From positions 3,118,879 to 3,182,878 of the forward strand of contig OZ025877.1 of the NCBI GenBank assembly GCA_964019415.1: a stretch of DNA of 64,000 bases, in the 5' to 3' direction. The notes under the pieces were generated by a model that saw only the letters and a program-made list of their open reading frames with translations, was not told the DNA's origin and made no database searches. A program made the position numbers and the translations under genes. The DNA is from Ianthella basta (taxonomy: Eukaryota > Porifera > Demospongiae > Verongiida > Ianthellidae). Below are positions 33,875-64,000 of the stretch, in pieces (position 1 is the first letter of the stretch; every line of letters begins with the position of its first letter).

Positions 33875-34679
33875 TTAGTAGCGAGCATAAGGCCCCCACA
33901 TGGCAGCAAGGATCACTCCTATCAGCAGCACAGGGTAGGAGGCGGCAAACACCACCTGCAGGACAAGACTTATTGTGCCAAACATCTTTGCCTCAGACGG
34001 CTTGTTGTCTTCCTTCTTGCTAACAGCCTGTTAAGAGGAAGAGAAGCTATGGGTGTCCAGTATGTGTGTGTGTTGGTGTGTTTTGGGGGCAGCATAGCAC
34101 AAGATGACCACTTACGGTTGCTTAATGTGGCTGTGTGATACTCACCACTATTCCCAAGATCATGGCCGGCACAAGGCAGAGCATTCCTGGAAGCCACATC
34201 AAAACTGTACAAGTCACCAAAATGACTATACTGGAGATGAGGGTGCCTTCAGGGAGATAGGTGCAGTTAGTAGAGCCTTCTGGTTGTACCAGTATTGCAG
34301 TAGGGTGGGCTTGAGGCTGTGCGAACACAACTCCTTGCGACTGAAGAAGACAAGCAAGAAGAATTAGTTTTACATTTAATATTGGCGGTTTAAAATAAGA
34401 TTGAAAGCTTGATTGAACAAAACTACAACTCTCTACTCAACACTCCACTGCGCTAGAACCAGTCCAGTCGCCGCTCCTGTAGGCTAGACTCACGGGGTAA
34501 GGCTGTGTGTAGTACTGTACTCCTGTCTGAGGTGGTGGTGGTTGGGCCTGAATGGGAACTGGCTGATGGAGAGGGAGCTGTTCTGGAGCGGGCTGCTGAG
34601 GAGATGGCTCGTCCCCCTCATCTTCGTTACGCAGAGGACTGTAGGAAGCGTTACTAGCCGGAGGATCACCCGAAGCCAT
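33875..34679 (-). CDS. CD225/IFITM-like array, gene A
   Basis: Exons (5' to 3'): 34494-34679, 34146-34340, 33875-34027, all phase 0, about 177 residues. The cytosolic N-terminus begins MASGDPPASNASYSPLRNED; YSPL is a YxxL-type endocytic signal. The first hydrophobic segment is ISSIVILVTCTVLMWLPGML then CLVPA; the second is TISLVLQVVFAASYPVLLIG. The tail is short (WGPYARY), without the Tyr-rich run of other copies, and exon 2 has lost LPKYAFVTS. It is the most diverged and outermost copy, transcribed towards the ASPM-like gene (tail-to-tail). TTTATT near 33718 may be the poly(A) signal on the minus strand. Confidence 0.75.
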
Positions 34680-34744
34680 GTCTTCCGTCGATGATCGATA
34701 GATTGAGAGAAACTCAACTACCAGCGCGAAGGAGTTTACGTGGC

Positions 34745-34765
34745 TGTAAACAGGAAGTCACGTGA
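34745..34765. promoter_or_regulatory. ETS/E-box composite upstream of gene A
   Basis: AGGAAGTCACGTGACC places an ETS-type GGAAG next to a TCACGTGA E-box, about 70 bp upstream of the gene A start codon. Such composites are common in core promoters. No TATA box is seen. Confidence 0.35.
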
Positions 34766-34769
34766 CCTG

Positions 34770-36000
34770 TGGAACCTCCTGTATAGGCCAGCGCTGTGGG
34801 CATGCAATGGACGCTCTACCCCCACGCATTGCAACTAACCATTGGAAGATGGCAGAGTTGTGCTACCTTCTGAAATGCTGGATTTGGCAACCATGCATGT
34901 GGCAACCAACTGTTGCTCAGGCAGAAGCCTTGACAAGGAAACCAGGGTGGAAAGCTGTGTCATGCTTACACAGTCACTCCATACGACATGAATTATATGT
35001 TGTATGGGACAGATTTTGCCACCCCATTGCTCCAAAGTTGTGTGCTGTAGTTGTATTGATCCTGTTGACGCCTACACCTGCTTTCTGTCCTCAAACAGTT
35101 GGTGACAGTATAGCTAGTGACACAATGGCTCTTGAGGTGTATGCTGTACAGCCTATACAGAAATGTGTTGCACATTGGGCTAGTAGGATAGGCTCAAGTG
35201 ATGAAATTGAATGTATGTGGGTAAAGTAATGCTGAGGACGTCATTATGCAAGTGGCCCACACAATGATTTGGTTGCATGTACATACATGTGTATGTATGT
35301 ATAGGGAATTTTCTATAGCCACATAGGTATGGCTGGTTATAAACGAATGTGAATGCAGAGTATTGTTGTACTGAATGTGTCTTTGGTTTGAGTGAGGATC
35401 ACAGATGTATTGGCTCTGTCTGTCCCTGTAGCCATTGTAATCCTCCGTGCTCTTTTCACTATCAGTTACTATCGTGGCCTGCTCCATTGTGTAAACTACA
35501 CATCACCTGATGTACATAGTACGAGGCAGTTATATAGGGGCTTCAGTGAAGTAGTGTTTGTATACTAGCAGTCCAGAGCGTCCATACTCTGTAGGCTTAC
35601 CTGCCTCGTCACAGCATACACTAGCTAGTACGTGATAGCTAAAGCAGAGATGGGAGGTACCTGCTATGACAATGACAACTGAAATTTGATTGTTGGAGCT
35701 CTGTTGTTTGTAATCCTTGAGACTTATTTACGTATGTAAGTGAATCAAGCAGGATACAATATGGTGGTGGACTCAGGTGTGCTGATATTTATATACGTAC
35801 ATACACATTCCATACCATAACATGCATACATATGTATGTACTACACATGTCATAACAGTTACTACATACATGTACATGTACGAACATTATAAAGTTACAT
35901 GAACTGAGTCCTAATGGGTTAACATGTTTGTGGGATGCATCAATCTATGCTTCTACACGTGAGGTCCTGAAGTGTTGCATTACAATGTTAGTTGCCATTT
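34770..36000. other. Spacer between genes A and B
   Basis: A plus-strand open frame at 34762-35229 (155 codons) has no recognisable motif and no paralogue elsewhere in the array, so it is not called. The rest is rich in TACATA/TACGTA words. A fragment CCTAATGGGTTAAC near 35910 matches the end of the 19234-19668 MITE. Confidence 0.35.
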
Positions 36001-36013
36001 GTCAAGCAAAGCT

Positions 36014-36249
36014 TCAACCACAGACACTGGGCCTGTATTTATAGTAATAAACACCGTTGTACTGTACTACTCTTGTGGAATAGTCGCAAATGTAGCCAAA
36101 CACACTACCAACGATCACTCCAGTGACCAAGATGGGGTAGGAGATGGCAAATATCAGCATGAAGATGAAGCTGATGATGCTGTACCGTTTGGCTTCTTTG
36201 AGTCTGTTGCCCTCCTTTTTGGTAATGGCCTGGAGAGGGAGGGGATGAG

Positions 36250-36343
<94 letters not shown>

Positions 36344-36831
36344 TGCACTCACCACCATACTAAGTATTACAGCTGGTACAAGACAGACAAACCCTGGCAG
36401 CCAACACAATGCTGTGAAGACCATGGTAGTCACCACACTGGTCACAAAGGCATACTTGGGGAGCCTGATGGAAGTGTCCGTAGATCTTGTGGCTGTTCTC
36501 TGCTGTGGCACCAACCTTGGCTGCTGAGGCTGGCCCAAGGCCACTTGTGGCTGCACACAAGTGGAGAAGAATAACGAATGATCCACGCAAGTTTGTATTG
36601 CTGTATGTTAATGCTTCCACTTACAGCAGGGTAGGGCTGTAGGTGGTATTGTACTCCTGTCTGAGGTGGTGGTTGTGGCTGAGTAGCAGCAGGTTGGGGC
36701 TGTTGGTATATGGGCTGTGCAGGAGCTGACGGCTGGAGCAACGGGCACGCTGCATCTTGATCGCATAAAAGTGTATACGTGTAGTTGGTTGATGGAACGG
36801 AGTCAGCCTGTCCGTGTTCCAGTGTAGCCAT
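36014..36831 (-). CDS. CD225/IFITM-like array, gene B
   Basis: Exons 36625-36831, 36353-36550, 36014-36229, all phase 0, about 206 residues. The N-terminus (MATLEHGQADSVPSTNYTYT) is unlike all other copies, but the QTGVQYHLQPYPA end of exon 1 and LPKYAFVTSVVTTMVFTALC are conserved. The second segment reads YSIISFIFMLIFAISYPILV and the tail YICDYSTRVVQYNGVYYYKY. The 74-nt first intron is the shortest of the set; the second contains a 90-bp TG/CA repeat. YNGV-type Tyr motifs occur in the tail. Confidence 0.78.
36252..36342. repeat. (TG)n microsatellite, about 45 units
   Basis: Uninterrupted TG run in intron 2 of gene B, (CA)n on the coding strand, beginning a few bases from the 5' splice site. 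Confidence 0.98.
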
Positions 36832-37397
36832 GTTCTCTGTCACGCACTTAGAGTAACGAGTCACTTTGGGAAACTGTGCCGCAATGCTGCTACTGGGTGT
36901 GTGTTGTGGTGTGAGCTCCAATGTAGGACTAAAACCGAAACAACTGCACAATTGTATGTGTGTATGTACTTGAAAATGCTGTATTATCTCAATGACACCC
37001 CCTACCCCCATTACTATTTGTGGAGTATAAGCATGACACAATAGTCATGCTTATTTATAATGATGTGAAAATGGCGTCATTCAGATTTCTAACTTGTATG
37101 TGGGCTATATGGCTGCACTTGGTACGTATGTACACGTGCATACATGAGAAGGATAAGGTCATTGTATGCACGCGTTACCATAGCCTCCTCCCACTTTATT
37201 CATTGTGAAGCAAGTTACAATCCAATGTAGCAGTTGGTCACCATGCATGACAAATATCACAAAACAGTGTACAATTCAAAGTTGATATATTGATATACAA
37301 ATGTAGTGTATGGTGAAATTCTGAACAATCCACTGTTCTGCTTATTTTACTTAAGATGGGCTGTTCTTCTGTGTACCCACATACATGTAGCTGTAGC

Positions 37398-38272
37398 TCA
37401 GTTGCAGAGCAGTGGCCCTTGGGGACCAGGTAGTTGTAGACTGTCTCTGGAGCTATAACCACATATATAGCCAAAGTTTGCGGCAACAATCAGTGTGGAT
37501 ACCAAGATGGGATAGGAAATGATGAATATCAGCACCAGTGCAAAACTGATGATACTGAACTTTTTGGCCTCCTTCAGTTTATGTTCATCCTTTTTTCTGA
37601 GAGCCTGTGTGAAGGCAGAGGGGAAGTGTGTATGCGTGCGTGTGTGTGTTTGTGTTTACTCACCACTATGCTGGTGATGATGGCTGGTACCAGACAGAGG
37701 TATCCTGGCAGCCAAAACAGCACAGTGAAGATGACTGTCATCACCAAACTGGTCATGATCGCGTACTTGGGGAGATTGGTGGTAGCTTCTTCTGGTTCTG
37801 TGTCGGTGTGCTGTGTTGTCTCCAGATCAGGCTGCTGTGGTTGGGCCAGACCTACCTGAGGCTGGGACAGTGAGTCAGTGGAGGTGTTTGTTACCAGTGG
37901 TAGGGGAGGCTTATTCACATTTTACTTACAAGAGTGAAATGTTGTGTGTAATGGTTTGTTTCTATCTCGGCCCGAGGGGGTAGGGGTTGTGTCTGGACCA
38001 CCTGTGGCTGTAGAGGTGTGAGGGGAGGGGTAGTGAGAGTGTGAATGGTAAAAGTCTCCACTTCACTGTATCTACCAGTTCCCACTTACAGCAGGATAGG
38101 GCTGTGTGTAGTACTGTACTCCTGTCTGAGGTGGTGGTGGTTGGGCCTGAACTGGGAGCTCAGGAGCTGATGGTTGTGGAGGTGGCTGGCCTTGTTCATG
38201 TCCAGGGATGTATGAAAGGCTGTAGGGCGGAGGGGCTTTGGTGTCCTCCTGGGCCATCTCTTCTGCTTCCAT
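37398..38272 (-). CDS. CD225/IFITM-like array, gene C (four exons)
   Basis: Exons 38090-38272, 37930-38007, 37664-37861, 37398-37604, all phase 0, about 216 residues. The N-terminus contains KAPPPYSLSYIPGHEQ: PPPY fits a WW-domain (NEDD4-type) ligand, as in IFITM3. The extra 78-nt exon begins PQVVQTQPLPPRAEIE, so it copies the start of a standard exon 2, and an independent exon 2 (PQVGLAQPQQ, NLPKYAIMTSLVMTVIFTVL) follows. This looks like partial exon duplication. The C-terminal tail (GYSSRDSLQLPGPQGPLLCN) is not Tyr-rich. Confidence 0.75.
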
Positions 38273-38945: not shown

Positions 38946-39856
38946 TCAAGCACAATAATTTGGTCGTACTTCACGTGCTAAAATTGTGTTACTGCTGAGG
39001 AACTGTGTCTGTCTTGGCTGGTAGTCACACAGGTAGCCGAGTGTTGAGGCAAGGATAACTGCAGCAAGCAAGATGGGGTAGGAGACAGCGAATATTAGTA
39101 CAAGGACAAAACTGATGATGCTGAACTGTCTGGCCTCTGTCAAATTTTTGTCTTCCTTCTTACTGATGGCCTGTGGGATATGGGAGAAGATGTACTGTGT
39201 GTGTGTGTGTGTGTTCATGTGTTAGTGTGGTCATATCGTGTGTTGTGCTCACCATTATACTCATGACAATGGCTGGTACAAGGCAGAAGAGTCCTGGCAC
39301 CCAGCAGAATATTATGGAGACAATGGAAAATAAGAAACTAGTCACAAATGCGTACTTTGGAAGGTGTTTAGCTCTCTCCTTAGCCCCTGATTCTGTGCCT
39401 TGTGTCTCCTCTGTGACAGGCTGTTGAGGCTGGGTCAGAACCACCTGTGATTTGTGATGGTTTGGTGATGGAACTGTGTGCGGGGCAGGGTGTGTAGTAG
39501 TGCACTTACGTACAACACGATGGGGTGGTGTGTAATACTGGTAACCTGACTGAGGTGGTGGTGCTGGTTGAGCCTCGACTGTCTGTGGCTTTAGAAGTGG
39601 TAGGGAGAGGGGAGGGGTAGTGAGAGTGTGAATGGTGAGTCTCCACTTCACTGTATCTACCAGTTCCACTTACAGCAGGGTAGGGCTGTGTGTAGTACTG
39701 TACTCCTGTCTGAGGTGGTGGTGGTTGGGCCTGAACTGGGAGCTCAGGAGCTGATGGTTGTGGAGGTGGCTGGCCTTGTTCATGTCCAGGGATGTATGAA
39801 AGGCTGTAGGGCGGAGGAACTTTGGTGTCCTCCTGGGCCTTCTCCACTTCTGCCAT
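38946..39856 (-). CDS. CD225/IFITM-like array, gene D (four exons)
   Basis: Exons 39674-39856, 39510-39588, 39253-39473, 38946-39170, about 235 residues, the longest of the family. Exon 1 is nearly the same as in gene C (KVPPPYSLSYIPGHEQ). An extra exon (PQTVEAQPAPPPQSGYQYYT) is a second-generation copy mixing exon 2 start and exon 1 end. It leaves phase 1, and the following exon has moved its acceptor upstream (LPSPNHHKSQVVLTQ) to enter in phase 1. The membrane parts are LPKYAFVTSFLFSIVSIIFC and FSIISFVLVLIFAVSYPILL. The tail ends REVRPNYCA. Confidence 0.75.
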
Positions 39857-40104
39857 GCCTTCTCTTTCTTGCTGAAAGATGAGCCTCTAACAACCACTCT
39901 ACACCTGTGCAAACTAGGACTCCACTTCCACTACTGGACACCATTTACACTGATTCCAGCTATTTGGTGTGAGCAAATCAAAGATGATCTATGAATAATC
40001 TATCATTCCTCTATGAATATGCTGTAGAATGGCTGCCCTGTGGAATTGCTTCACAAAACTTCCGTGTGTGCGTGTGTTTGTGTGTGTGTATGTACGTACA
40101 TGTA

Positions 40105-40300
40105 TGTTACCAATGTACTGGTGACGATGGCTGGTACAGGACAACTGATCACAAAGGCATACTTGGGCAGTTTGTTGTCTTGCAGACCAGACTGTTGTGC
40201 AGTGCCTCATGGGGAGGTCTGGAGGTGCGGCATGGCTTTCTATGGCACGAAGTGGCCAGGATCTTTGCCAGCCAATCAGATCGAAGTGTAGCCAATTAAA
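40105..40300 (-). pseudogene. Relic exon 2 with deleted membrane segment
   Basis: The minus strand contains KLPKYAFVIS directly followed by CPVPAIVTS and a GTAACA donor-like site. The bases for most of the first hydrophobic segment are missing. The upstream flank (CTGTTGTGCAGTGCC, TGGGGAGGTCTGG) recurs at 48795-48960, so the relic was copied together with genes E/I. Confidence 0.6.
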
Positions 40301-40968: not shown

Positions 40969-41299
40969 TTACCCACAGGCATAGGACCTGATGTAGTAAC
41001 CGTAGCCATAGTATGCACTCTCTCTGGGCAAATAGTCACACCTGTAGCCAAACACAGAGGCCAGGATGACCATGGTAACCAAGATGGGGTAGGAGATGGC
41101 GAATATCATAACAAGGACAAAACTGATGATGCTGAATTGTTTTGCCTCCTTCAGTTTGTCGTCTTCCTTCTTGCTGAGGGCCTGTGTGTGAGAAGAGACA
41201 AGTGTACGTACTCTCTTGTCTTTAGAACACATGCCCTTTGGTACCCTATAGACACCCCTACACTGTCCATTTGTACTGAAAATCCTGAATGAGAGGCTC

Positions 41300-41338
<39 letters not shown>

Positions 41339-42804
41339 CATCATCGCCAAAATGGCTGCCACTAGGTCTCAAGTGTTAGTGGACAGTCCAGTTTGCTTGA
41401 AGTTTGCATCTGAGAGACGCTCAGTTTGTACCTACAGGTACAGAACAGTCGTACAGGCAGCACTGGATGTGGAAGCTACAGCCCCACAAAGGAAGTAGAG
41501 GAGAAATGGCAACCTGTTCGAAGTGCAAGCTTTGGCCATCTACTGTAACAGTGAATGGAATGGAGACATGTCCTCGATGATCATTGAAATAGGCAACTAT
41601 CACAACGCATTGGTCTGTCGGGCATACCAAAGACCTGACTCGGAGCTGGCAGGCCTTCGACAGGTGAATGATGGACAAGCGTCCCCACCTGCTGACGGAT
41701 GGAAGAGGGAATTACTCCTTATGGGCCCCCTGCTGCTTCAACACTACAGAATCAACTGGAGAGCAGAGCTCAAGCAGTGCTACCAATGTTGGTAAGCTGG
41801 CCTGGCACAAAAGTCCCAGCAACAGCAGCACAGTGGATCTGTTGGTGACGTACACAACCAGGGAGCGGCACCACAGCATCAAGACACTTTTGACTTGCCA
41901 GTTGACACTGTCACAGGCACACAGACACACACAACTCCTTATATATATTATCTATATGCATGCACACAACCCCTCCCCCCCTCCCCCCCTATGCATACAC
42001 AACTTTTGGCACTACTCCAAAACCCTACCAAGAGTCATTGACAGTTTTGAATTGTCAATCACTGTTTTTCCGATAACGCCATTTCCTTATTTTCATAATG
42101 TTTTAATAAGGAAATGTTTTGTCCAATGTGTGCGTGTGTGTATGTGTGTGTGTGTGTGAGTGTAGTGTGTGTGCGTGTGTGTGTGTGAGTGTAGTGTGTG
42201 TGCGTGTGTGTGAGTGTAGTGTGTGTGTGTGTGTGTGTGTGTGTTGAGTGTAGTGTGTGTATGTGTGTGTGTCTGTGTGTTACCATAGATACTCTATTAC
42301 TCACCATTATACTGAAGATTGTGGCTGGCACAAGACAGAGGAATCCTGGTACCCAACACAGCACTGTGAAGATGATTGTAACCACTACACTGGTCACAAA
42401 GGCATACTTGGGGAGTTTAGTGTCTGTGGGAGTTGTGAAAGTCTGCTGTGTGGCCACAATGGGCATCTGAGGTTGGGCTAGGACTGCCTGTGGCTGTAGA
42501 GGTGTGAGGGGAGGGGTAGTGAGAGTGTGAATGGTGAGTTTCCACTTCACTGTATCTACCAGTTCCCACTTACAGCAGGGTAGGGCTGTGTGTAGTACTG
42601 TACTCCTGTCTGAGGTGGTGGTGGTTGGGCCTGAACTGGGAGGGGCTGCTGAGGAGGAGGCTGTGTTTGTTGATTGAAGGGCTGTCCTGGGATAGGAGTA
42701 GGCTGTGGCTGTCCAGGATCTGACTGTAGGGGAGCAAGTTCATGTCCCTCATCTACATTGCGTAGAGGTATGTAGGAATGGTTGTGGGGATAGTTGTCAG
42801 CCAT
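40969..42804 (-). CDS. CD225/IFITM-like array, gene E
   Basis: Exons 42574-42804, 42305-42493, 40969-41181, all phase 0, about 210 residues. The N-terminus MADNYPHNHSYIPLRNVDEG has YIPL, a YxxL sorting-type motif; Gln/Pro-rich sequence follows to QPYPA. Exon 2 has PKYAFVTSVVVTIIFTVLCW; exon 3 has FSIISFVLVMIFAISYPILV and the tail CDYLPRESAYYGYGYY. Intron 2 is long (1.12 kb) with TG repeats at 41302-41337 and 42129-42290. Gene I is its sister copy with the same long intron. Confidence 0.78.
41302..41337. repeat. (TG)n microsatellite
   Basis: Eighteen TG units in intron 2 of gene E. Confidence 0.97.
42129..42282. repeat. Compound TG/GAGTGTAG repeat
   Basis: TG tracts interrupted at regular spacing by GAGTGTAGTG, giving a minisatellite-like higher-order pattern close to the 5' splice site of intron 2 of gene E. 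Confidence 0.85.
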
Positions 42805-43906: not shown

Positions 43907-44640
43907 TTACCTACTGTATGTACTTGCAGTACATGATAGAATGAGAAAAATACCAAATGCCTTATCCTTGATTCCACAACCATATATCGACGCAAGGATC
44001 ACCGCAGTAACCAAGATGGGGTAGGAGATGGCGAAAATCGATAGACAGATGAAGCTGATGATGCTGAGCTGTTTGGCCTCCTTTCTTTTGTTGTCATCTT
44101 CCTTGCTCAGGGCCTGAGTGAGGGGAGAAGAGTGTGTGTGTGTATGTGTGTGTACACGTGCATGGGTGTATGCTACTCACCACTATACTCAAGACCGTGG
44201 CTGGTACAAGGCAGACGAGTCCTGGTATCCACAAGAACGCTGTACAAAGCAATATTGTAATCACACTGGTCACAAAGGCATATCTTGTGAGTAAGGTGTA
44301 ATTCTCTGTAGGTCTTGAAAAAGCCTGCTGTATGCCTCCAGTGGGCATCTGAGGTTGGGCTAGGATAACCTGTGACTGTTGAGGTGTAAGGGGAGGGATA
44401 GTGAGAGTGTGAATGGTACAAGTCTGCACTTCACTGTATCTATCAGTTCCCACTTACAGCAGGGTAGGGCTGTGTGTAGTACTCTACTCCTGTCTGAGGT
44501 GGTGGTGGTTGGGCCAGAACTGTGAGGGGCTGCTGAGGAGGAGGCTGCGTTTGTTGATTGAAGGGCTGTCCTGGGGTAGGATTAGGGAAGCTGTAAGGAG
44601 GGGCACCTGTGGCCCCTTGGGTCTTCTCCATTTCTGCCAT
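43907..44640 (-). CDS. CD225/IFITM-like array, gene F
   Basis: Exons 44458-44640, 44181-44375, 43907-44113, all phase 0, about 194 residues. The N-terminus is of the MAEMEKTQGATGAPPYSFPN type. Exon 2 is diverged (LLTRYAFVTSVITILLCTAF, GLVCLVPA), and its acceptor uses TCACAG in place of the common CCACAG start. Exon 3 reads LSIISFICLSIFAISYPILV, but the normal Tyr-rich tail is replaced by a hydrophobic one (KAFGIFLILSCTAS), possibly a third membrane segment or drift after loss of the usual stop. Confidence 0.72.
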
Positions 44641-46859: not shown

Positions 46860-47671
46860 TTACCTAGCACAATAGGAGGGCCTGTAGTAGTAGTAGCCGT
46901 AGTAGTTGTAGTTGTATCCTCCATACTGGTAGTTACAAATGTAGCCGAATACAGTAGCAAGGATCACCGTGGTAACCAAGATGGGGTAGGAGACAGTGAA
47001 TATCAGAACAAGGACAAAACTGATGATGCTGAACTGTCTGGCCTCCTTCACTTTGTTGCTCTCCTTCTTACTGAGGGCCTGTGGGAATGGGGATGGGAGA
47101 TGTGTGTGTGCTTGTCTGTATCTTCTGTGTGGGAAGTGTGAGGGTTGAGTGTGTCTGGGTGTGATACTCACCATGATACTCAAGATGGTGGCTGGCACAA
47201 GGCAGAAGAATCCTGGCAGCCAAAACAGCACTGTGAAGATGATTGTAACCACCATACTGGTCACAAAGGCATACTTGGGGAGCATTGTGTCTGTGGGTGT
47301 TGTGAGTGTCTGCTGTGTTGCCACAACGGGCATCTCGGGCTGGGTCATAACCACTTGTGGCTGTAGAGGTGTGAGGGGAGGGGTAGTGAGAGTGTGAATG
47401 GTGAGTCTCCACTTCACTGTATCTACCAGTTTCCACTTACAGCAGGGTAGGGCTGTGTGTAGTACTGTACTCCTGTCTGAGGTGGTGGTGGTTGGTCTTG
47501 AACTGGGAGGGGCTGCTGAGGAAGAGGCTGTGTTTGTTGATTGAAGGGCTGTCCTGGGGTAGGAGTAGGCTGTGGCTGTCCAGGATCTGACTGTAGGGAA
47601 GCAAGTTCATGTCCCTCATCTACATTGCGTAGTGGCATGTAGGAATGGTTGTGGGGATAGTTGTCAGCCAT
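46860..47671 (-). CDS. CD225/IFITM-like array, gene G
   Basis: Exons 47441-47671, 47172-47360, 46860-47078, all phase 0, about 212 residues. N-terminus MADNYPHNHSYMPLRNVDEG with YMPL (YxxL-type). First segment PKYAFVTSMVVTIIFTVLFW then CLVPA; second FSIISFVLVLIFTVSYPILV. The tail is strongly Tyr-rich (YGGYNYNYYGYYYYRPSYCA), encoded by TAC-type triplet runs. The 80-nt first intron and a short second intron (93 nt) make it the most compact copy. Confidence 0.8.
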
Positions 47672-48063: not shown

Positions 48064-48243
48064 AGCAGGGTAGGGCTGTGTGTAGTACTGTACTCCTGTC
48101 TGAGGTGGTGGTTGGGCTTGAACTGTGAGGAGCTGCTGAGGAGGAGACTGTGTTTGCTGATTGAAGGGCTGTCCTGGTGTGGGAGTGGGAGAGCTGTAAG
48201 GAGGGGCACCTGTGGCCTCTTGGGTCTTCTCCACCTCAGCCAT
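48064..48243 (-). pseudogene. Solitary exon 1 (gene H relic)
   Basis: An intact exon 1 (MAEVEKTQEATGAPPYSSPT to QPYPA) with its GTAAGT donor and the first part of intron 1. The homology stops near 47990. The next sequence is the 5' flank of gene G, so exons 2 and 3 are missing. Likely product of unequal crossing-over. It could be spliced to exon 2 of gene G only if gene G's own exon 1 were skipped. Confidence 0.75.
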
Positions 48244-49572: not shown

Positions 49573-50034
49573 TTACCCACAGGCATAGGGCCTAATGTAG
49601 TAACTGTAGCCATAGTACGCACTCTCTCTGGGCAAATAGTCACACATGTAGCCAAACACAGAGGCCAGGATGACCGTGGTAACCAAGATGGGGTAGGAGA
49701 TGGCGAATATTAGAACAAGGATAAAACTGATGATGCTGAACCGTTTAGCCTCCTTCAGTTTGTCGTCCTCCTTGCTGAGGGCCTGCGTGTGAGCAGAGAC
49801 AAGTGTTAGGACACATGCCCTTTGGTACCCTATAGACACCACTTCATGCTACCTACAACAGTCAATGCACACTAATCTATTTGGAGAAGCCACTGAGCTG
49901 TCCTTCCTGCATCCTGCAGCATATAGACAATAACTGTTTTCCCGATGATGCCATTTCCCTATAATTGTACTGTTGTTTTAATAAGGAAATGTTTTGACTT
50001 GTATGTATGTGTGTGTACGTGTGTGTCTGTGTGT

Positions 50035-50091
<57 letters not shown>

Positions 50092-51219
50092 CGTGCCATG
50101 CGTGTGTGTGTGTGTCTGTGTGTTACCATACACGAGCTGAATGCCCGCCCTACGGGCAGGTTCCAGCTTATCGCAAGCCAGTGAGTCGGTACCTTGCCAG
50201 TTTTGAACTATCTGCACAGGTAGCAACGGAGGCTAGTTGCTATAACGACGGTAGTGTTTAATTCGAACGTTTGGCGACAACGAATAAGATTTTCCGTAAC
50301 CGGAAGTCCCAGAAACCAATAATTAAAAATGGCGTCTCGGCCCGCGGGAAAAAAGGAAGCGCTTTCTTCGGCTGCAGGGTAGCTAGGTGAACGACACCCC
50401 TCTAAACTCATGTCCTCCCACTCCCTTAACTGGCATGGCTCGTATCAAGTACGCCAATGGCCGGTAGTGGAAGGGCCGGTCGATAATATTAAAAATGGCG
50501 TGTCGGCCCGCGGAGAATTGACGAAGGACGTCTCCCTTTTCGGCCGCAAGGCAGCTAGGCGAACGGCACTCCGTTACGAACATGTCCCCCGAGTTCACCA
50601 ACAGGAACGGAGCGTCTCGAGCCCATTCCCGGCAAGGCGCCGATTTTATGGCTGAACAAACATACGTCCAAATTCTAGATCCCGTGAATTATAGTAGGAT
50701 ACTCTGATACTCACCATTATACTCAAGACCGTAGCTGGTACAAGACAGAGGAGTCCTGGCAGCCAGCAGAGCAGTGTGAAGATGATTGTAGCTACCACAC
50801 TGGTCACAAAGGCGTACTTCGGAAGTTTAGTGGAGGTGTCTTTTGGCCCAGTGACAGTCTGCTGTGTGGCCACAATGGGCATCTGAGGTTGTGTCTGGAC
50901 CACCTGTGGCTGTAGAGGTGTGAGGGGAGGGGTAGTGAGGGTGTGAATGGTGAGTCTCCACTTCACTGTATCTACCAGTTCCACTTACAGCAGGGTAGGG
51001 CTGTGTGTAGTACTGTACTCCTGTCTGAGGTGGTGGTGGTTGGGCCTGAACTGTGAGGGGCTGCTGAGGAGGAGGCTGTGTTTGCTGATTGAAGGGCTGT
51101 CCTGTTGTAGGATTAGGCTGTGGCTGTTTAGGATCTGACTGTAGGGGAGCAAGTTCATCTCCCTCATCTACATTGCGTAGAGGTATGTAGGAGTGGTTGT
51201 AGGGAGAGTTGTCAGCCAT
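49573..51219 (-). CDS. CD225/IFITM-like array, gene I
   Basis: Exons 50989-51219, 50715-50909, 49573-49782, all phase 0, about 211 residues. N-terminus MADNSPYNHSYIPLRNVDEG with YIPL. Exon 2 carries STKLPKYAFVTSVVATIIFT and CWLPGLLCLVPA; exon 3 FSIISFILVLIFAISYPILV and CDYLPRESAYYGYSYY. It is sister to gene E by its long intron 2, C-terminal tail and flanks. Intron 2 (932 nt) contains a TG repeat and a CpG-rich duplicated block at 50300-50600. Confidence 0.8.
50010..50125. repeat. (TG)n compound microsatellite
   Basis: TG run with TGTC and TGCG interruptions in intron 2 of gene I. Confidence 0.95.
50275..50600. repeat. CpG-rich tandem duplicated block with AAAAATGGCGT motif
   Basis: Two units share ATTAAAAATGGCGTCTCGGC (second unit GTGTCGGC), CCCGCGG, and then TAGCTAGG(T/C)GAACG. 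They start near 50323 and 50490. Composition is much richer in CG dinucleotides than the rest of the array. AATGGCG resembles a YY1-type site. Confidence 0.65.
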
Positions 51220-51731: not shown

Positions 51732-51777
51732 ACCCCACGATAGGGCCTAAGTTGCGTAGGTTGCAACATAAGTTAAG

Positions 51778-51912
51778 TAGTTACAAATGTAGCCAAATAT
51801 AGAACTGATGCAAGGATCACCGTGGTAACCAAGATGGAGTAGGAGATGGTGAATATCAGTACATGGACAAAACTGATGATGCTGAACTGTTTGGCCTCCT
51901 TCAGTTTGTTGT
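51778..51912 (-). pseudogene. Solitary exon 3 relic
   Basis: The minus strand matches exon 3 from KLKEAKQFSIISFV to TTVILAS, then ends in a short insertion before YIC. Both the ALSKKE start with its acceptor and the C-terminal tail are missing. No exon 1 or 2 belongs to it. Confidence 0.75.
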
Positions 51913-51975
51913 TAACTACAAGGATGTATCAGTCTGAAGTGACTAGCAGATATATAGGAGGTGGCAGAATGTATA

Positions 51976-52549: not shown

Positions 52550-53280
52550 TTACCTAGCACAGTAGGAGGGCCTGTAGTAGTAGTAGCTGTAGTAGTTGTA
52601 TCCTCCATACTGGTAGTTACAAATGTAGCCAAATACAGATGCAAGGATCACCGTGGTAACCAAGATGGGGTAGGAGATGACGAATATCAGAACAAGGATG
52701 AAACTGATGATGCTGAACTGTTTGGCCTCCTTCAGTTTGTTGCTCTCTTTCATGCTGAGAGCCTGTGGAAAGGAAGGGGGAGGTGTGTGTGTGTGTGTGT
52801 GTGTGTGTTTTTGTGTGTCTGTGTGTGTATTTCTCACCACTATACTCAAGATGGTGGCTGGGACAAGGCAGAAGAATCCTGGCAGCCAAAACAGCATTGT
52901 GAAGATGATTGTAACCACCACACTGGTCACAAAGGCATACTTGGGGAGTTTAGTGTCTGTGGGTGTTGTGAATGTCTGCTGAGTGGCCACAATGGGCATT
53001 TGAGGTTGTGTCTGGACCACCTGTGGCTGTAGAGGTGTGATGGGAGGGGTAGTGAGAGTGTGAATGGTGAGTCTCCACTTCACTGTATCTACCAGTTCCC
53101 ACTTACAGCAGGATAGGGCTGTGTGTAGTACTGTACTCCTGTCTGAGGTGGTGGTGGTTGGGCCTGAACTGGGAGGAGCTGCTGAGGAGGAGGCTGTGTT
53201 TGTTGATTGAAGGGCTGTCCTGGTTTAGGATATGGAGAGCTGTAAGGAAGGGCACCTGTGGCAACTTCCATTTCTGCCAT
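52550..53280 (-). CDS. CD225/IFITM-like array, gene J
   Basis: Exons 53107-53280, 52838-53026, 52550-52762, all phase 0, about 191 residues. The start at MAEMEVATGALPYSSP (53280) is chosen by homology; an in-frame ATG at 53334 would add 18 residues not seen in sister copies. Membrane parts PKYAFVTSVVVTIIFTMLFW and FSIISFILVLIFVISYPILV; tail YGGYNYYSYYYYRPSYCAR. The second intron starts with GTGAGAAATAC and holds a TG tract near 52784-52830. Confidence 0.8.
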
Positions 53281-54023: not shown

Positions 54024-54300
54024 TCAGCTTCCGCATACAGCAGGCTTGCTGTAGTAGTAGGGATAGTAGTATGAGTTGTAGTAGTTGTTTCTGTAGTAGT
54101 AGGGATTGTAGCTGCTCAGCCTCTCTCTGGGCTGGTAGTCACAAATGTAGCCAAATACAGATGCAAGGATCACCGTGACAACCAAGATGGGGTAGGAGAT
54201 GGCAAAGATCAGGACCAGGACAAAACTGATGATGCTGAACCGTTTGGCCTCTTTCAGTTCGTTCTTTTCCTTCTTGTTGAGGGCCTGTGGGAAAAGAGAG

Positions 54301-54364
<64 letters not shown>

Positions 54365-54845
54365 GTGTGGGTTTGTATTTCGCACCACTATACTCAAGAC
54401 CGTAGCTGGTACTAGACAGGCGAGTCCTGGCAGCCAGCAGAGCACTGTGAAGATGATTGTAGCCACCACGCTGGTCACAAAGGCGTACTTCGGAAGTTTA
54501 GCAGAGATGTCTTTGGGCCTTGTGACAGTCTGCTCTGTGGCCTCAATGGGCATCTGAGGTTGTGTCTGGACCACATGTGGCTGTAGAGGTGTGAGGGGAG
54601 GGATAGTGAGAGTGTGTATGATACAAGTCTCCACTTCACTGTATCTACCAGTTCCCACTTACAGCAGGGTAGGGCTGTGTGTAGTACTCTACTCCTGTCT
54701 GAGGTGGTGGTGGTTGGGCCTGAACTGTGAGGGGCTGCTGAGGAGGAAGCCGTTTTTGTTGATTGAAGGGCTGTCCTGGTGTAGGATAAGGAGAGCTGTA
54801 AGGAGGGGCACCTGTGGCCACTTGGGTCTTCTTCACTTCAGTCAT
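54024..54845 (-). CDS. CD225/IFITM-like array, gene K
   Basis: Exons 54663-54845, 54386-54580, 54024-54284, all phase 0, about 212 residues. N-terminus MTEVKKTQVATGAPPYSSPY. Exon 2 has AKLPKYAFVTSVVATIIFTV and its donor is GTGCGA rather than GTGAGT. Exon 3 starts ALNKKEKNELKEAKRFSIIS, has SYPILVVTVILASVFGYICD and the longest Tyr-rich tail (about 35 residues: SSYNPYYYRNNYYNSYYYPY). It lacks a Met, so an ATG-based search misses this exon. A 58-bp TG repeat occupies intron 2. Confidence 0.78.
54303..54360. repeat. (TG)n microsatellite
   Basis: Uninterrupted TG run in intron 2 of gene K. Confidence 0.97.
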
Positions 54846-57232: not shown

Positions 57233-57976
57233 TTACCTAGCACAATAGGATGGCCTGTAGTAGTAGTAGCTGTATCCTCTATACTGGTAGCTACAATTGT
57301 AGCCAAATACAGTTGCAAGGATCACCGTAGTAACCAAGATGGGGTAGGAGACAGCGAAAACCAGTACAAGGATAAAGCTGATGATGCTGAACTTTCTGGC
57401 TTCCTTCAGTTTGTTGCTCTCCTTCTTACTGAGGGCCTGTGGGAATGGGGATGGGAGATGTGTGTGTGTGCTTATCTGCATCTTCTGTGTGGGAGTGTGG
57501 TTGTGCAGTGGGTGGGTGTGATACTCGCCATGATGCTCAAGATGGTGGCTGGCACAAGGCAGAGGAATCCTGGCAGCCAAAACAGCACTGTGAAGATGAT
57601 TGTAACCACCACACTGGTCACAAAGGCATACTTGGGGAGTTTAGTGTCTGTGGGCCTTGGGAAAGTCTGCTGTGTGACAATGGGCATCTGAGGTTGGGCT
57701 AGGACCACCTGTGGCTGTAGAGGTGTGAGGGGAGGGGTAGTGAGAGTGTGAATGGTAAAAGTCTCCACTTCACTGTATCTACCAGTTTCCACTTACAGCA
57801 GGATAGGGCTGTGTGTAGTACTGTACTCCTGTCTGAGGTGGTGGTGGTTGGGCCTGAACTGGGAGGAACTGCTGAGGAGGCTGTGTTTGTTGATTGAAGG
57901 GCTGTCCTGGTGTAGGATTAGGAGAGCTGTAAGGAGGGGCACCTGTGGCCTCTTGGGTCTTCTCCACTTCTGCCAT
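57233..57976 (-). CDS. CD225/IFITM-like array, gene L
   Basis: Exons 57797-57976, 57529-57714, 57233-57436, all phase 0, about 189 residues. N-terminus MAEVEKTQEATGAPPYSSPN; PKYAFVTSVVVTIIFTVLFW; FSIISFILVLVFAVSYPILV; tail YQYRGYSYYYYRPSYCAR. The second intron begins ATG|GCGAGT where sister genes have ATG|GTGAGT, so either a GC-AG intron is used or splicing is weakened. One codon is deleted in the VATQQTF region (VTQQTF). Confidence 0.75.
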
Positions 57977-58817: not shown

Positions 58818-59553
58818 TTAGTATGTGCAAGAGTAGTAAGAATAATAGTATCTGTATCCCCCATAGCGGCTGCCACAACCAAATACAGTTGCAAGGATCA
58901 CCGTGGTAACCAAGATGGGGTAGGAGACAGCAAATATCAGTACAAGGACAAAACTGATGATGCTAAACTGTTTGGCTTCCTTCAGTTTGTTACTCTCCTT
59001 CTTACTGAGGGCCTGTGGAAAGTGAGGGTGGGATATGTGTGTGGGCTTGTCTGTATCTAGCGTGTGTGAGTGTGTAGTGAGTGGGTGAGGTGTGATACTC
59101 ACCACTATACTCAATATTGTGGCTGGGACAAGGCAGAGGAATCCTGGTACCCAACACAGCACTGTGAAGATGATTGTAACCACCACACTGGTCACAAAGG
59201 CATACTTGGGGAGTTTAGTGTCTGTGGGTGTTGTAAATGTTTGCTGTGTGGCCACAATGGGCATTTGAGGTTGGGCTAGGACCACCTGTGGCTGTAGAGG
59301 TGTGAGGGGAGGGGTAGTGAGAGTGTGAATGGTGAGTCTCCACTTCACTGTATCTACCAGTTCCACTTACAGCAGGGTAGGGCTGTGTGTAGTACTGTAC
59401 TCCTGTCTGAGGTGGTGGTGGTTGGGCCTGAACTGGGAGGGGCTGCTGAGGAGGAGGTTGTGTTTGTTGATTGAACGACTGTCCTGCTGTAGGATTAGGA
59501 GAGCTGTAAGGAGGGGCACCTGTGGCCTCTTGGGTCCTCTCCACTTCTGCCAT
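58818..59553 (-). CDS. CD225/IFITM-like array, gene M
   Basis: Exons 59371-59553, 59103-59291, 58818-59012, all phase 0, about 188 residues. N-terminus MAEVERTQEATGAPPYSSPN; PKYAFVTSVVVTIIFTVLCW; FSIISFVLVLIFAVSYPILV. The tail after the second segment differs (FGCGSRYGGYRYYYSYYSCT): the YIC motif is replaced by GCGS. Its 3' half and 3' flank were copied to relic O. Confidence 0.8.
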
Positions 59554-60606: not shown

Positions 60607-61413
60607 TTACCTAGCACAGTAGGAGGGCCTGTAGTAGTAGTAGTAGCTGTAGTAGCTGTATCCTCCATACTGGTAGTTACAAATGTAGCCAAATACAGTT
60701 GCAAGGATCACCGTGGTAACCAAGATGGGGTAGGAGACAGCAAATATCAGTACAAGGATGAAACTGATGATGCTGAACCGTTTGGCCTCCTTCAGTTTGT
60801 TACTCTCCTTCTTGCTGAGGGCCTGTGGGAATGGATTGGGAGATGTGTGAGTGTGCGTGTGCGTGTCTGTACCTTGTGTGTAAAGTGTGTGTGTGTGTGT
60901 GTGTGTGTGTCTGTGTGTGTGTGTGTCGTGCCTGTGTGTGTCTGTGTGTGTATTTCTCACCACTATACTCAAGACGGTGGCTGGGACAAGGCAGAGGAAT
61001 CCTGGCAGCCAAAACAGCACTGTGAAGATGATTGTAACCACCACACTGGTCACAAAGGCATACTTGGGGAGTTTGGTGTCTGTGGGAGTTGTGAAAGTCT
61101 GCTGTGTGGCCACAATGGGCATCTGAGGTTGGGCTAGGACCACCTGTGGCTGTAGAGGTGTGAGGGGAGGGATAGTGAGAGTGTGAATGGTAAAAGTTTC
61201 CACTTCACTGTATCTACCAGTTCCACTTACAGCAGGGTAGGGCTGTGTGTAGTACTGTACTCCTGTCTGAGGTGGTGGTGGTTGGGCCTGAACTGTGAGG
61301 AGCTGCTGAGGAGGAGGCTGTGTTTGTTGATTGAAGGGCTGTCCTGCTGTAGGATTAGGGAAGCTATAAGGAGGGGCACCTGTGGCCTCTTGGATCTTCT
61401 CCACTTCAGTCAT
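60607..61413 (-). CDS. CD225/IFITM-like array, gene N
   Basis: Exons 61231-61413, 60961-61149, 60607-60822, all phase 0, about 195 residues. N-terminus MTEVEKIQEATGAPPYSFPN; PKYAFVTSVVVTIIFTVLFW; FSIISFILVLIFAVSYPILV; tail YGGYSYYSYYYYYRPSYCAR with five Tyr in a row. The second intron is so rich in CA that one minus-strand frame stays open through it (NTHTDTHRH and on). It is read here as intron because donor GTGAGAAAT and acceptor CCCACAG are conserved. Confidence 0.8.
   Translation of the reverse strand: MTEVEKIQEATGAPPYSFPNPTAGQPFNQQTQPPPQQLLTVQAQPPPPQTGVQYYTQPYPAVSGTGRYSEVETFTIHTLTIPPLTPLQPQVVLAQPQMPIVATQQTFTTPTDTKLPKYAFVTSVVVTIIFTVLFWLPGFLCLVPATVLSIVVRNTHTDTHRHDTHTHRHTHTHTHTLYTQGTDTHTHTHTSPNPFPQALSKKESNKLKEAKRFSIISFILVLIFAVSYPILVTTVILATVFGYICNYQYGGYSYYSYYYYYRPSYCAR
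60885..60952. repeat. (TG)n compound microsatellite
   Basis: TG runs with TGTC interruptions in intron 2 of gene N. Confidence 0.92.
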
Positions 61414-62237
61414 CTCTCTTCTCTGGCAATAGAGGGATCTTCTTCAGTCTACACTTGAGCAAATCTAACAAGTCTTTCCTGTTTCCTTCTACGTAGGCTG
61501 TTATGGGGTTGTGTCTGTACTCTGACCTTGTAATTGTATTAGGTACAGGAATGCGGGTAATTATTCAGTATTCAATTACTGGTCATGCATGCTCAGGCAT
61601 ACCTGGCCTTCCTTAGGAATGTCTATGGATTCTTTAGGAATGTGCAACCAAACAAACAAACTCTGTTGACCATACTGTTTGGTCAGTTCGTTTTACCTGT
61701 CTGCAGTGATCACTTTCTGTTGCACTCTTTAAGCTGAACAGTCCTTTTATGGAAAGTGTGACAGATAACACATGCTGTTATTTGGACCCCGGCAGCAAAT
61801 AGATGCATTGCTCTGTGAAGATGAACAGACATAGCCGCAACTGTTTGGCCACTTATGTCTGGTCTTGTATTGAAAGGAAACATCTCTGTCTTGTGTTCAT
61901 ACTAGTACAAGACCAAGGGGAGTTGATCCAGCTACTATGCAATCATTGTAGAAGTGCTTCCAGTCTTCATGCAGTTAAGCTATTGTAGTCAAACCAATAT
62001 TGATGTTGTGCCGACACTGTTACAACTGGTTCAATGTCTCCACTGCTACAGAAGTGTGTGCATGGTCAGATAATAAAGGGATGTTTGTGCCTGCTCTAAC
62101 TGCATCGAAAATCATGGAAAAGTTACAGGTCTGTATAAAGGGGGTTTGCCTACATTCAATAGAGTGTCGTGAGTTGTAATGTGATGCGGTAGCACTACTT
62201 CCGGTCGGAGGCTGCTTGAGGCTGAGTTGGTATCCTT

Positions 62238-62431
62238 CTTTAGTATGTGCAAGAGTAGTAAGAATAATAGTATCTGTATCCCCCATAGCGGCTGCCACAA
62301 CCAAATACAGTGGCAAGGATCACCGTGGTAACCAAGATGGGGTAGGAGACAGCAAATATCAGTACAAGGACAAAATGCTGATGATGCTGAAACTTTTGTC
62401 CTCCTTTAGTTTATTGTCCTCCTTACTAATG
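62238..62431 (-). pseudogene. Broken exon 3 (gene O relic)
   Basis: Close copy of gene M exon 3 (same GCGSRYGGYRYYYSYY tail), but with a 2-base insertion at about 62375 (ACAAAATGCTGATG for ACAAAACTGATG). The acceptor is also lost: GGCCCATAAG replaces GGCCTGTGG. Homology ends at about 62460 in a CG run. No exon 1 or 2 follows. Confidence 0.8.
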
Positions 62432-62463
62432 GCCCATAAGAATGGAGAGAGGGAGATGTGTGT

Positions 62464-62482
62464 GTGCGCGCGCGCGCGCACG
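62464..62482. repeat. (CG)n tract
   Basis: GCGCGCGCGCGCGCACGC, a Z-DNA-prone run at the breakpoint of relic O. Confidence 0.9.
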
Positions 62483-62520
62483 CATACATGCACCACTCGT
62501 CACTATTATTGAGTTGCTTG

Positions 62521-62739
62521 AAATCTTGACAAGACACTATTCAAAAAGAACTTGATTTATACGTTCATCAGTAATAATTTACGCATACAGGCACTACTGT
62601 ATAAATACAGGATGGATGACAGATGGTGACAGGTCACGTGAGGTAAGGGTGAGGCGCAAACACAAAGGTGAAAGTATTCAAAGAGAACCAAAACGTCTAC
62701 ATAAATCAAGTTCTTTTTGGTAGTGTCTCATCAAGATTT
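62521..62739. mobile_element. MITE, ~220 bp
   Basis: Ends AAATCTTGACAAGACACTAT and TAGTGTCTCATCAAGATTT, continuing AAAAAGAACTTGATTTATA with ATAAATCAAGTTCTTTTTGG, are inverse partners of about 40 bp. It sits at the end of the truncated relic O. Confidence 0.82.
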
Positions 62740-63261
62740 CAAACATGAATCAGTTCCCTAGCCACTCGGGAAATTACAATGTTATTGAATTCATATACAA
62801 GTCTTGGTGTTACGCACCTTTGAACATGCAGGAAGATTGGTGGTGCGTTTAATTATCTGTTAAATTTGTTAAGTTTTGCTCAACAAACTGAGGTAATGTG
62901 GGGGTTTGGTCAAGAGACCCCTTCTGATATAGGTAGGCACCCTTCCCTGCACTTGTCTGAATGTAACATAGATATGCCTGAATGTGATCAAGCATGTGTG
63001 TACCCTGACCTTGTGGTACAGTACGTATGCTGTATAAATTGTATGAGGTAGAGGAAGGTGGGTACTTGTTTATTCATTTACTAGTCATGCTTGGGCTCAG
63101 TTGGTCTACATACTAAGTCTTGAGGACACAGTCGAGTTTCTGTACATTCGATAGTGCATGTGTTGTAATGTACTACATTACATTACACACTGCTTCCAGT
63201 TTGACAGCTGTTTGTTGAGTTTTGTGTAGACACTCTTTTCCTACCTAGCACAATATTGGTA

Positions 63262-64000
63262 TCAGGGTATGGAGGGACCGTATCCAGTGTGGTAGTACCT
63301 CCTAAACTGGTAGTGAACGTTGTAGCTGAATACAGATGCAAGGATCACCGTGGCAACCAAGATGGGGTAGGAGATGGTGAATATCAGTACAAGGACAAAA
63401 CTGATGATGCTGAACTGTCTGGCCTCCTTCACTTTGTTACTCTCCTTCTTACTGAGGGCCTGTGGAAAGGGTGGGGGAGGTGTGTGTGTGTGTGTGTGTG
63501 TATGTATTTACATGCATATGTGTGATGCTCACCATTATACTCAAGATTGTGGCTGGTACAAGACAGAATAGTCCTGGTACCCAACACAGCACTGTAAATA
63601 TCAGTATAGCCACCACACTGGTCACAAAGGCGTACTTGGGGATGTTGGTGTCTGTGGGTGTTGTGAAAGTCAATGGGCATCTGAGGTTGTGTCTGGACCA
63701 CCTGTGGCTGTAGAGGTGTGAGGGGAGGGATAGTGAGAGTGTGTATGATACAAGTCTCCACTTCACTGTATCTACCAGTTCCACTTACAGCAGGGTAGGG
63801 CTGTGTGTAGTACTGTACTCCTGTCTGAGGTGGTGGTTGGGCCTGAACTGGGAGGGGCTGCTGAGGAGGAAGCTGTGTTTGTTGATTGAAGTGCTGTCCT
63901 GGTGTAGGAGTAGGCTGGGGCTGAGTTGGTAAGCGGGATGATGGCTTTTGGCTGAAGGCCTGTCCTGGATCTGACTGGATGAGAAGTTCCATCTCCCTCA
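63262..64000 (-). pseudogene. CD225/IFITM-like array, gene P, frameshifted, cut by window edge
   Basis: Exon 3 63262-63459 is intact (KEARQFSIISFVLVLIFTIS, tail RYYHTGYGPSIP). Exon 2 63533-63707 is 175 nt instead of 189: 14 bases of the IVATQQTF coding stretch are missing, shifting PQVVQTQPQMPI out of frame with TPTDTNIPKYAFVTS. Exon 1 runs from 63789 towards the window end. Relative to genes E/G/I its EGDELAPLQSDP region is also shifted; a Met at 63992 could still open the QSDPGQ frame. The deletion should inactivate the protein unless splicing changes. Confidence 0.7.

What the first reader, a model, noticed from the sequence alone, without database searches (positions are those of the whole stretch)
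33875..64000. Tandem expansion of a CD225/IFITM-like membrane protein family, at least 13 copies, all one strand
Twelve copies with intact frames, a frameshifted copy and several relics lie head to tail in 30 kb. Seen directly: conserved LPKYAFVTS, W(V/L)PG.LCLVPA, LKEAK.FSIISF and SYPILVT, two hydrophobic segments, and an intron between them. Established for CD225 proteins: a first membrane-associated segment with Cys, a short polar loop, a second segment, and in IFITM genes an intron at the equivalent place. The Pro/Gln-rich 60-77-residue N-terminus with a Tyr-rich C-tail is not a form I recognise from vertebrates. A restriction-factor or membrane-fusion role is inference.
Basis: partly seen in the sequence, partly recalled or inferred. 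Interest (0 to 1): 0.9.

Follow-up and report, generated by a model that had tools for sequence, protein, structure and literature searches.

The report
Tandem array of divergent dispanin-like membrane proteins
In an animal genome (probably a sponge) about twenty head-to-tail copies of a small membrane-protein gene form an offshoot of the CD225/IFITM family that has kept the family's gene layout but lost its signature amino acids; it may be a repertoire for controlling membrane traffic or fusion, which is untested.

Summary
The array is real. I find 13 intact three-exon copies on the minus strand in the window, plus one frameshifted copy, one lone first exon and three exon relics. Six more copies with three open exons lie just beyond the window. 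Exons 2 and 3 are under purifying selection (median dN/dS 0.29 and 0.27).

CD225 membership fails the usual tests: 0 of 13 pass Pfam's cut-off (best 18.0 bits against 27.1), and the G-D pair, A-x6-A, CC, GxxxG and central Arg are absent.

Descent from CD225 is nevertheless well supported. The loop intron is phase 0 and sits where this genome's own CD225 genes have it. A gapless CD225 profile fits best exactly there in 13 of 13 copies; 0 of 2000 column permutations do as well.

So this is a divergent dispanin branch in a genome that also carries canonical CD225 arrays. A trafficking or fusion-modulating role is inference. An antiviral role is weaker: IFITM3's key residues are missing and promoter elements are not clearly enriched.

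The parts
33875..34679 (-). copy c1, 177 aa, exons 34679-34494, 34340-34146, 34027-33875 (longest branch among the copies; N-terminal YSPL; no Tyr-rich tail)
36014..36831 (-). copy c2, 206 aa, exons 36831-36625, 36550-36353, 36229-36014
37398..38272 (-). copy c3, 195 aa, exons 38272-38090, 37861-37664, 37604-37398 (PPPY in N-terminus)
38946..39856 (-). copy c4, 199 aa, exons 39856-39674, 39444-39253, 39170-38946 (best CD225 score; PPPY)
40969..42804 (-). copy c5, 210 aa, exons 42804-42574, 42493-42305, 41181-40969 (long second intron; N-terminal YIPL)
43907..44640 (-). copy c6, 192 aa, exons 44640-44458, 44369-44181, 44113-43907
46860..47671 (-). copy c7, 212 aa, exons 47671-47441, 47360-47172, 47078-46860 (N-terminal YMPL)
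48064..48243 (-). c8: lone exon 1 with intact donor, no exon 2 or 3 found
49573..51219 (-). copy c9, 211 aa, exons 51219-50989, 50909-50715, 49782-49573 (long second intron; N-terminal YIPL)
52550..53280 (-). copy c10, 191 aa, exons 53280-53107, 53026-52838, 52762-52550
54024..54845 (-). copy c11, 212 aa, exons 54845-54663, 54580-54386, 54284-54024 (second donor GTGCGA)
57233..57976 (-). copy c12, 189 aa, exons 57976-57797, 57714-57529, 57436-57233 (second intron with GC donor)
58818..59553 (-). copy c13, 188 aa, exons 59553-59371, 59291-59103, 59012-58818
60607..61413 (-). copy c14, 195 aa, exons 61413-61231, 61149-60961, 60822-60607 (used as type copy)
63244..63929 (-). c15: copy with frameshifted exon 2
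40120..40179 (-). exon 2 relic
51777..51913 (-). exon 3 relic (two frames)
62255..62424 (-). exon 3 relic (frameshifted)

Best explanation
A tandem, birth-and-death array of a divergent dispanin (CD225-descended) gene. SHOWN: three coding exons joined in phase 0; the loop splice site is the one used by this genome's CD225 genes; a gapless CD225 block matches best at that site; the coding exons are under purifying selection; broken copies and relics lie among intact ones. INFERRED: the Pro/Gln-rich N-terminus is cytosolic and carries sorting or adaptor signals (SYxPL in 7 of 19 intact copies, PPPY in 2 of the 13 in the window). The first hydrophobic stretch, about 35 residues broken at W-(L/V/I)-P-G, dips into the cytosolic leaflet as a re-entrant hairpin. 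The positively charged loop stays cytosolic, the second stretch crosses the membrane, and the often Tyr-rich tail is luminal or extracellular. Oligomers would then alter membrane order or curvature, or engage fusion machinery, and so tune endosomal or secretory fusion, with copies specialised by N-terminus and tail. Confidence in CD225 descent about 0.85; in the trafficking or fusion mechanism about 0.4.
For: Gene models: with splice junctions matched by intronless P0003. CD225 descent: a gapless CD225 PSSM (-8 to +22 around the intron, 103 usable rows of 106 CD225 homologues) ranks first at the intron in 13 of 13 copies, in P0003, and in 2 of 4 distant relatives. A hydrophobicity-class-only version ranks first there in 0 of 18, and 0 of 2000 local column permutations reach the real mean (8.84 against -9.89, sd 4.8). 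Four block lengths give rank 1 in 51 of 52 tests. Ala at +13 after the intron: 9 of 10 distinct CD225 pattern matches and 12 of 13 window copies. In 27 of 27 CD225 TM1 exons examined an in-frame donor follows A-x3-S-x2, and 17 of 27 start cag|VV, 15 of them VVxxQP (only in-frame sites were searched); the window's exon 2 starts with VVxxQP in 9 of 13 and with one V changed in 4. hhalign P 0.0011; 2 of 100 local shuffles score higher. Selection: median pairwise dN/dS 0.48, 0.29, 0.27 for exons 1, 2, 3. Loop net charge +1 to +4 and Cys at -11, each in 13 of 13. Loop splice site and topology of dispanins: PMC3282796 and PMC7665892 (passages).
Against: Pfam CD225: 0 of 13 above cut-off, 4 of 13 any match at E<=10; weak DUF4190 (10 of 13) and Pox_A14 (12 of 13) matches are commoner. 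hhalign probability only 20%. Shuffles of the family reach 22.4 bits against the CD225 HMM where the best real sequence has 23.5. The gapless block was chosen after I had seen the alignment by eye, its zero point rests on placing P0029 against the genome's CD225 exons by eye, and the copies are not independent. It fails at the intron in 2 of 4 distant relatives (g8 rank 2, g9b rank 6). G-D, A-x6-A, CC, GxxxG and the R-SNARE-like Arg are absent in all 13; a Gly in the second segment occurs in 1 of 13. No structure model could be made. No functional or expression data.
Confidence: 0.55

Rival explanations
1. An antiviral restriction array: IFITM-like proteins blocking virus entry, expanded under viral pressure and sitting near a PARP14-like gene.
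For: Tandem turnover of copies. A PARP14-like gene (KH of PARP14 type, Macro, WWE, PARP) ends 8.4 kb from the array, with a cytochrome b561 gene between; PARP14 as an interferon-stimulated gene is recalled. YxxPhi-type N-terminal motifs in a subset. Short IRF-type elements in 6 of 13 upstream regions, null mean 2.6.
Against: F75/F78, R85 and G95, whose mutation abolishes IFITM3 activity in PMC11730294 (passages), are not conserved at the aligned positions in any of 13 (alignment to IFITM3 numbering partly recalled). Pairwise dN/dS is below 1 in every usable pair of exons 2 and 3 and above 1 in 1 of 75 for exon 1, so no diversifying selection shows at this coarse level. Full ISRE in 1 of 13 upstream regions, and the short IRF element count (6) lies within the shuffle range (mean 3.1, maximum 7).
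Confidence: 0.15
2. An unrelated membrane-shaping hairpin family (reticulon, PRA1 or caveolin-like) that resembles dispanins by convergence.
For: Both hydrophobic stretches are long (about 35 and 30 residues) with a central Pro (W-x-PG and SYP). Sub-threshold PRA1 matches in 3 of 13.
Against: The intron-anchored gapless CD225 match, which hydrophobicity alone does not place, the shared phase-0 splice site and the shared exon start.
Confidence: 0.15
3. A surface adhesive role: the Tyr-rich tail faces outside and the array supplies matrix or adhesion proteins.
For: The C-tail of several copies is Tyr-rich (up to 12 Tyr in the last 30 residues).
Against: Tyr are few in c1, c3, c4 and c6 (2-3 in the last 30 residues), while the membrane segments and loop are the conserved part.
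Confidence: 0.08

Closest known systems
CD225/dispanin family (Pfam PF04505): IFITM, PRRT1/2, SynDIG, TUSC5
   Same: Two hydrophobic segments around a short basic loop; Pro-rich N-terminus in its own exon (an extra N-terminal exon is reported for DSPC and DSPD1); splice site in the loop at the same residue and phase as this genome's CD225 genes; Cys in the first segment
   Different: Below the Pfam cut-off; no CC, G-D, A-x6-A or GxxxG; first segment about 7-8 residues longer with an invariant W-x-P-G; second segment starts earlier; longer, often Tyr-rich C-tail
Canonical CD225 arrays of the same genome (contig C13 1.85-2.11 Mb and 2.71 Mb; others on C8, C7, C12, C6)
   Same: TM1 exon often starting VVxxQP (15 of 27); phase-0 loop intron; Ala at -7 and +13
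   Different: Three joined examples score E 8.3e-22 or better; 23 of 27 TM1 exons keep CC and the second exons found keep the loop Gly and A-x6-A; the window family does not
DUF4190 (PF13828) and other small two-segment families (MpPF26, Pox_A14)
   Same: Weak sub-threshold matches over the first segment or both
   Different: Matches seen in full are below their cut-offs; gene structure not compared

Membership tests
CD225/dispanin | Pfam PF04505 score above the curated cut-off (27.1 bits) | tested here: not met
   0 of 13; best c4, 18.0 bits, E 0.0032
CD225/dispanin | splice site in the loop separating the two segments (reported as conserved in eukaryotic dispanins, PMC3282796 passages) | tested here: met
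   13 of 13, phase 0; Ala at -7 in 13 of 13, Ser at -3 in 12 of 13, Ala at +13 in 12 of 13, as in the genome's CD225 genes
CD225/dispanin | profile similarity above chance around that site | tested here: met
   gapless block best at the intron in 13 of 13; 0 of 2000 permutations; gapped profile comparison only marginal
CD225/dispanin | double Cys in the first segment | tested here: not met
   0 of 13; one distant relative at C10:7.28 Mb has CC
CD225/dispanin | G-D and A-x6-A motifs in the loop | tested here: not met
   0 of 13 for G-D; first Ala kept at +13 in 12 of 13 (c9 at +12), second Ala absent in 13 of 13
CD225/dispanin | basic loop | tested here: met
   net charge +1 to +4 in 13 of 13
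CD225/dispanin | conserved Gly in the second segment | tested here: not met
   a Gly in 1 of 13
IFITM3-type activity | GxxxG and R-SNARE-like central Arg | tested here: not met
   0 of 13 at the aligned positions; IFITM3 numbering relative to its exon junction is recalled. Some human CD225 proteins also lack them (PMC7665892, PMC11730294, passages)
CD225/dispanin | re-entrant first segment, single spanning second segment | not testable with these tools
   structure prediction switched off; only charge and hydropathy examined

The most novel reading that the evidence does not exclude
A lineage-specific multigene repertoire in which one conserved, re-engineered dispanin membrane module (W-x-P-G hairpin, no GxxxG or SNARE-like Arg) is paired with interchangeable N-terminal cassettes (SYxPL, PPPY or neither) to place fusion modulators in different compartments, used in early animals for microbe or virus handling near a PARP14-like gene.
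Probability: 0.18. Interest if true: 0.8.

Novelty: new variant of a known kind. Interest (0 to 1): 0.52.

Why it matters
It shows a branch of the IFITM/PRRT family that kept the gene skeleton but changed nearly every residue held to be important, and then multiplied, in a genome that also keeps canonical CD225 arrays. If it still modulates fusion, GxxxG and the SNARE-like Arg are not the only way a dispanin works. If it does not, it marks a new use of the fold. It also offers a testable case of membrane-protein array evolution near an immunity-type gene in a non-vertebrate. On whether it is in print: 'Porifera' with 'CD225' is held in no paper of the library; of the titles listed for dispanin/sponge/CD225 (20 of 39) and Amphimedon/CD225/IFITM (15 of 1,865) none describes it. 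Only open-licence PMC papers are held.

Tried and rejected
Plain CD225 membership: rejected on the Pfam test. Poxvirus A14 as a relative: sub-threshold in 12 of 13 (best E 0.0013), not followed further. A prokaryotic or viral source: scans of genome contigs and viral contigs with two peptide patterns each gave 42 and 10 pattern hits and no confirmed relative. Interferon-type promoter: full ISRE in 1 of 13, short IRF element in 6 of 13 (null mean 2.6 copies), NF-kB-like 1 of 13, no clear enrichment. N-terminal cassette swapping: the SYxPL label needs 5 changes on the membrane-domain tree against 5.9 for shuffled labels, but 0 of 16 inner branches is well supported, so undecided. Organism naming: not achieved; two rRNA searches did not complete. 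The sponge guess rests on genome size and on hits in unnamed contigs that look like host DNA in environmental samples. First hhalign run had two copies wrongly cut by my script and is superseded. RNA families and tRNAs in the window: none (ARAGORN with the bacterial code).
Full report
WHAT IS THERE. Thirteen intact three-exon genes, all on the minus strand, occupy 33875-61413 of the window. With them lie one frameshifted copy, one lone first exon and three exon relics. Exon 1 encodes 58-77 residues rich in Pro and Gln. Exon 2 (62-66 aa) begins at or two to three residues before VVxxQP (9 of 13 copies; the other 4 have one V changed, QP is invariant) and ends with the first hydrophobic segment. 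Exon 3 (50-86 aa) holds a basic loop, the second hydrophobic segment and a variable, often Tyr-rich tail. Both introns are phase 0. The first donor is GTAAGT in 12 and GTGAGT in 1 of 13; the second is mostly GTGAGT, with GTGCGA in c11 and a GC donor in c12. A public 875-nt contig (P0003) encodes the spliced form without introns, which matches both junctions. ATG-to-ATG spacing between intact copies is 1.4-3.5 kb.

EXTENT. The array continues past the window with six further copies whose three exons are open (for four of them the exon 2 acceptor is not pinned) and one broken copy, to about 3196.8 kb of contig C10: at least 19 intact copies in about 44 kb. Distant relatives lie at C8:4554 kb, C10:7276 kb, C10:7234 kb (one exon seen) and C9:5175-5177 kb (two, on opposite strands). 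The family profile returns 28 proteins (only the 8000 best candidates were scored) and a wider alignment 28, overlapping sets. None carries a Pfam domain or a name; two are the window's own (P0001, P0027), and some match this genome's own relatives closely enough to be the same or a near species. Pattern scans of the prokaryote genome collection and of viral contigs gave no confirmed relative.

SELECTION. Pairwise dN/dS among the 13 copies has median 0.48, 0.29 and 0.27 for exons 1, 2 and 3 (75, 77 and 73 usable pairs of 78). No usable pair exceeds 1 in exons 2 and 3, and 1 of 75 does in exon 1. The membrane module is therefore maintained as protein; nothing here shows diversifying selection, though pairwise averages are a blunt test.

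IS IT CD225? By the standard test, no. None of 13 passes Pfam's cut-off. The best is c4 with 18.0 bits, and only 4 of 13 give any CD225 match at E<=10, against 12 of 13 for Pox_A14 and 10 of 13 for DUF4190. Those other matches seen in full are also below cut-off. The same genome holds real CD225 genes: 52 exon matches on C13, C8, C7, C12 and C6, 51 over the cut-off, and three joined examples score 8.3e-22 to 2.5e-23. Motifs listed as conserved in the dispanin paper (PMC3282796, passages and abstract read) are missing: no CC, no G-D and no A-x6-A in any of 13, and a Gly in the second segment in only 1. The genome's own CD225 genes keep CC in 23 of 27 TM1 exons, and their loops have Gly followed by D, N, Q or R.

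IS IT DESCENDED FROM CD225? Probably yes. [quoted passage not shown] Of the 52 CD225 matches I fetched 30 loci, 27 with a first-segment exon. In 27 of 27 an in-frame donor follows the pattern A-x3-S-x2, and 17 of 27 start cag|VV, 15 of these VVxxQP (only in-frame sites were looked for, so phase 0 is assumed and found consistent rather than tested against other phases). Nine of ten distinct CD225 second-exon pattern matches have Ala at +13; the tenth gave no credible acceptor. The window family has Ala at -7 in 13 of 13, Ser at -3 in 12 of 13 and Ala at +13 in 12 of 13. I then built a gapless profile of CD225 positions -8 to +22 around that intron from 106 CD225 homologues (103 rows usable) and slid it along each protein. 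The block was chosen after the match had been noticed by eye, and its zero point comes from placing one homologue (P0029) against the genome's CD225 exons by eye. It scores best exactly at the intron in 13 of 13 copies, in P0003, and in two of four distant relatives (g9a, and g10 with a score near zero; g8 rank 2, g9b rank 6). A version keeping only the hydrophobic or polar class places none of 18 there, and 0 of 2000 local column permutations reach the real mean (other block lengths included, rank 1 in 51 of 52 tests). Gapped comparisons agree but weakly: hhalign P 0.0011, probability 20%, 2 of 100 local shuffles higher; own CD225 HMM at 16 bits or more for 6 of 22 sequences against 13 of 2200 shuffles, though the best shuffle reached 22.4 bits and the best real sequence 23.5. 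The copies are related to one another, so these are not 13 independent tests. The difference from CD225 is an extra 7-8 residues in the first segment, around the invariant W-x-P-G, and an earlier start of the second segment (read by eye).

HOW IT MIGHT WORK. By charge, the loop (+1 to +4 in 13 of 13) should be cytosolic, and the Pro/Gln-rich N-terminus with its sorting-like motifs also suits the cytosol. That leaves the first segment as a re-entrant hairpin, as described for IFITM3 (PMC7665892, passages; the older dispanin paper, PMC3282796, instead drew both ends outside), broken here at W-x-P-G. An invariant Cys at -11 is a candidate palmitoylation site. Seven of 19 intact copies carry SYxPL near the N-terminus and c3 and c4 carry PPPY; that such motifs act as sorting or ubiquitin-ligase signals is recalled knowledge, not tested. 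The residues whose mutation kills IFITM3 activity and weakens syntaxin-7 binding (F75/F78, R85, G95; PMC11730294, passages) are not conserved, so an IFITM3-like mechanism through those residues is unlikely. I favour a trafficking or fusion-modulating role at endosomal or secretory membranes, at about 0.4.

SURROUNDINGS. A PARP14-like gene lies on the plus strand at 13.9-25.5 kb: KH_PARP14_2, Macro (in two frames), WWE and one PARP piece pass their cut-offs, RRM_PARP14_3 and another PARP piece do not. A cytochrome b561 gene lies at 29.3-30.0 kb. The neighbourhood is suggestive of immunity but is one genome only. Upstream regions show no clear interferon-type enrichment: ISRE in 1 of 13 (null mean 0.1), short IRF element in 6 of 13 (null mean 2.6; total count within the shuffle range).

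PRIOR WORK. PMC7653359 (passages) reports that a sponge, O. carmela, may have kept a dispanin C1; PMC3499546 (passages) says vertebrate IFITM genes have two exons. Other papers were seen only as search listings.

LIMITS. No structure prediction was possible. No expression data. The tree of copies is unresolved.

Noticed in passing
window 13947-25490, plus strand: PARP14-like gene: KH_PARP14_2, Macro, WWE and one PARP catalytic piece pass Pfam cut-offs, RRM_PARP14_3 and another PARP piece fall short.
   Followed up: partly
window 29301-30020, plus strand: Eukaryotic cytochrome b561 domain, E 1.4e-22.
   Followed up: no
G000 contig C13 1.85-2.11 Mb and 2.71 Mb; C8 4.26 Mb: Separate clusters of canonical CD225 genes in the same genome, nearly all on one strand within the 1.85-2.11 Mb array, some exons with stops.
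   Followed up: partly
window 39582-39520, minus strand: Inside the first intron of copy c4, an open stretch resembling the end of exon 1 (TVEAQPAPPPQSGYQYYTPPH), possibly an extra or duplicated exon.
   Followed up: no
window 58.3-59.0 kb and 61.8-62.4 kb; also 40.1 and 48.8 kb: Closely similar stretches recur between copies, probably marks of segmental duplication within the array (read by eye from the ORF list).
   Followed up: no
second introns of several copies, e.g. c2, c11, c14: CA-type repeats fill much of the second intron of several copies.
   Followed up: no
window 1501-2106, minus strand: Open frame that looks like the end of a non-LTR reverse transcriptase (recalled look; Pfam gave no match).
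   Followed up: partly
A1, 12 of 13 members: Recurrent sub-threshold matches to Pox_A14, a small poxvirus envelope protein family (best E 0.0013; P0003 E 0.00031); perhaps a shared hydrophobic pattern, untested.
   Followed up: no
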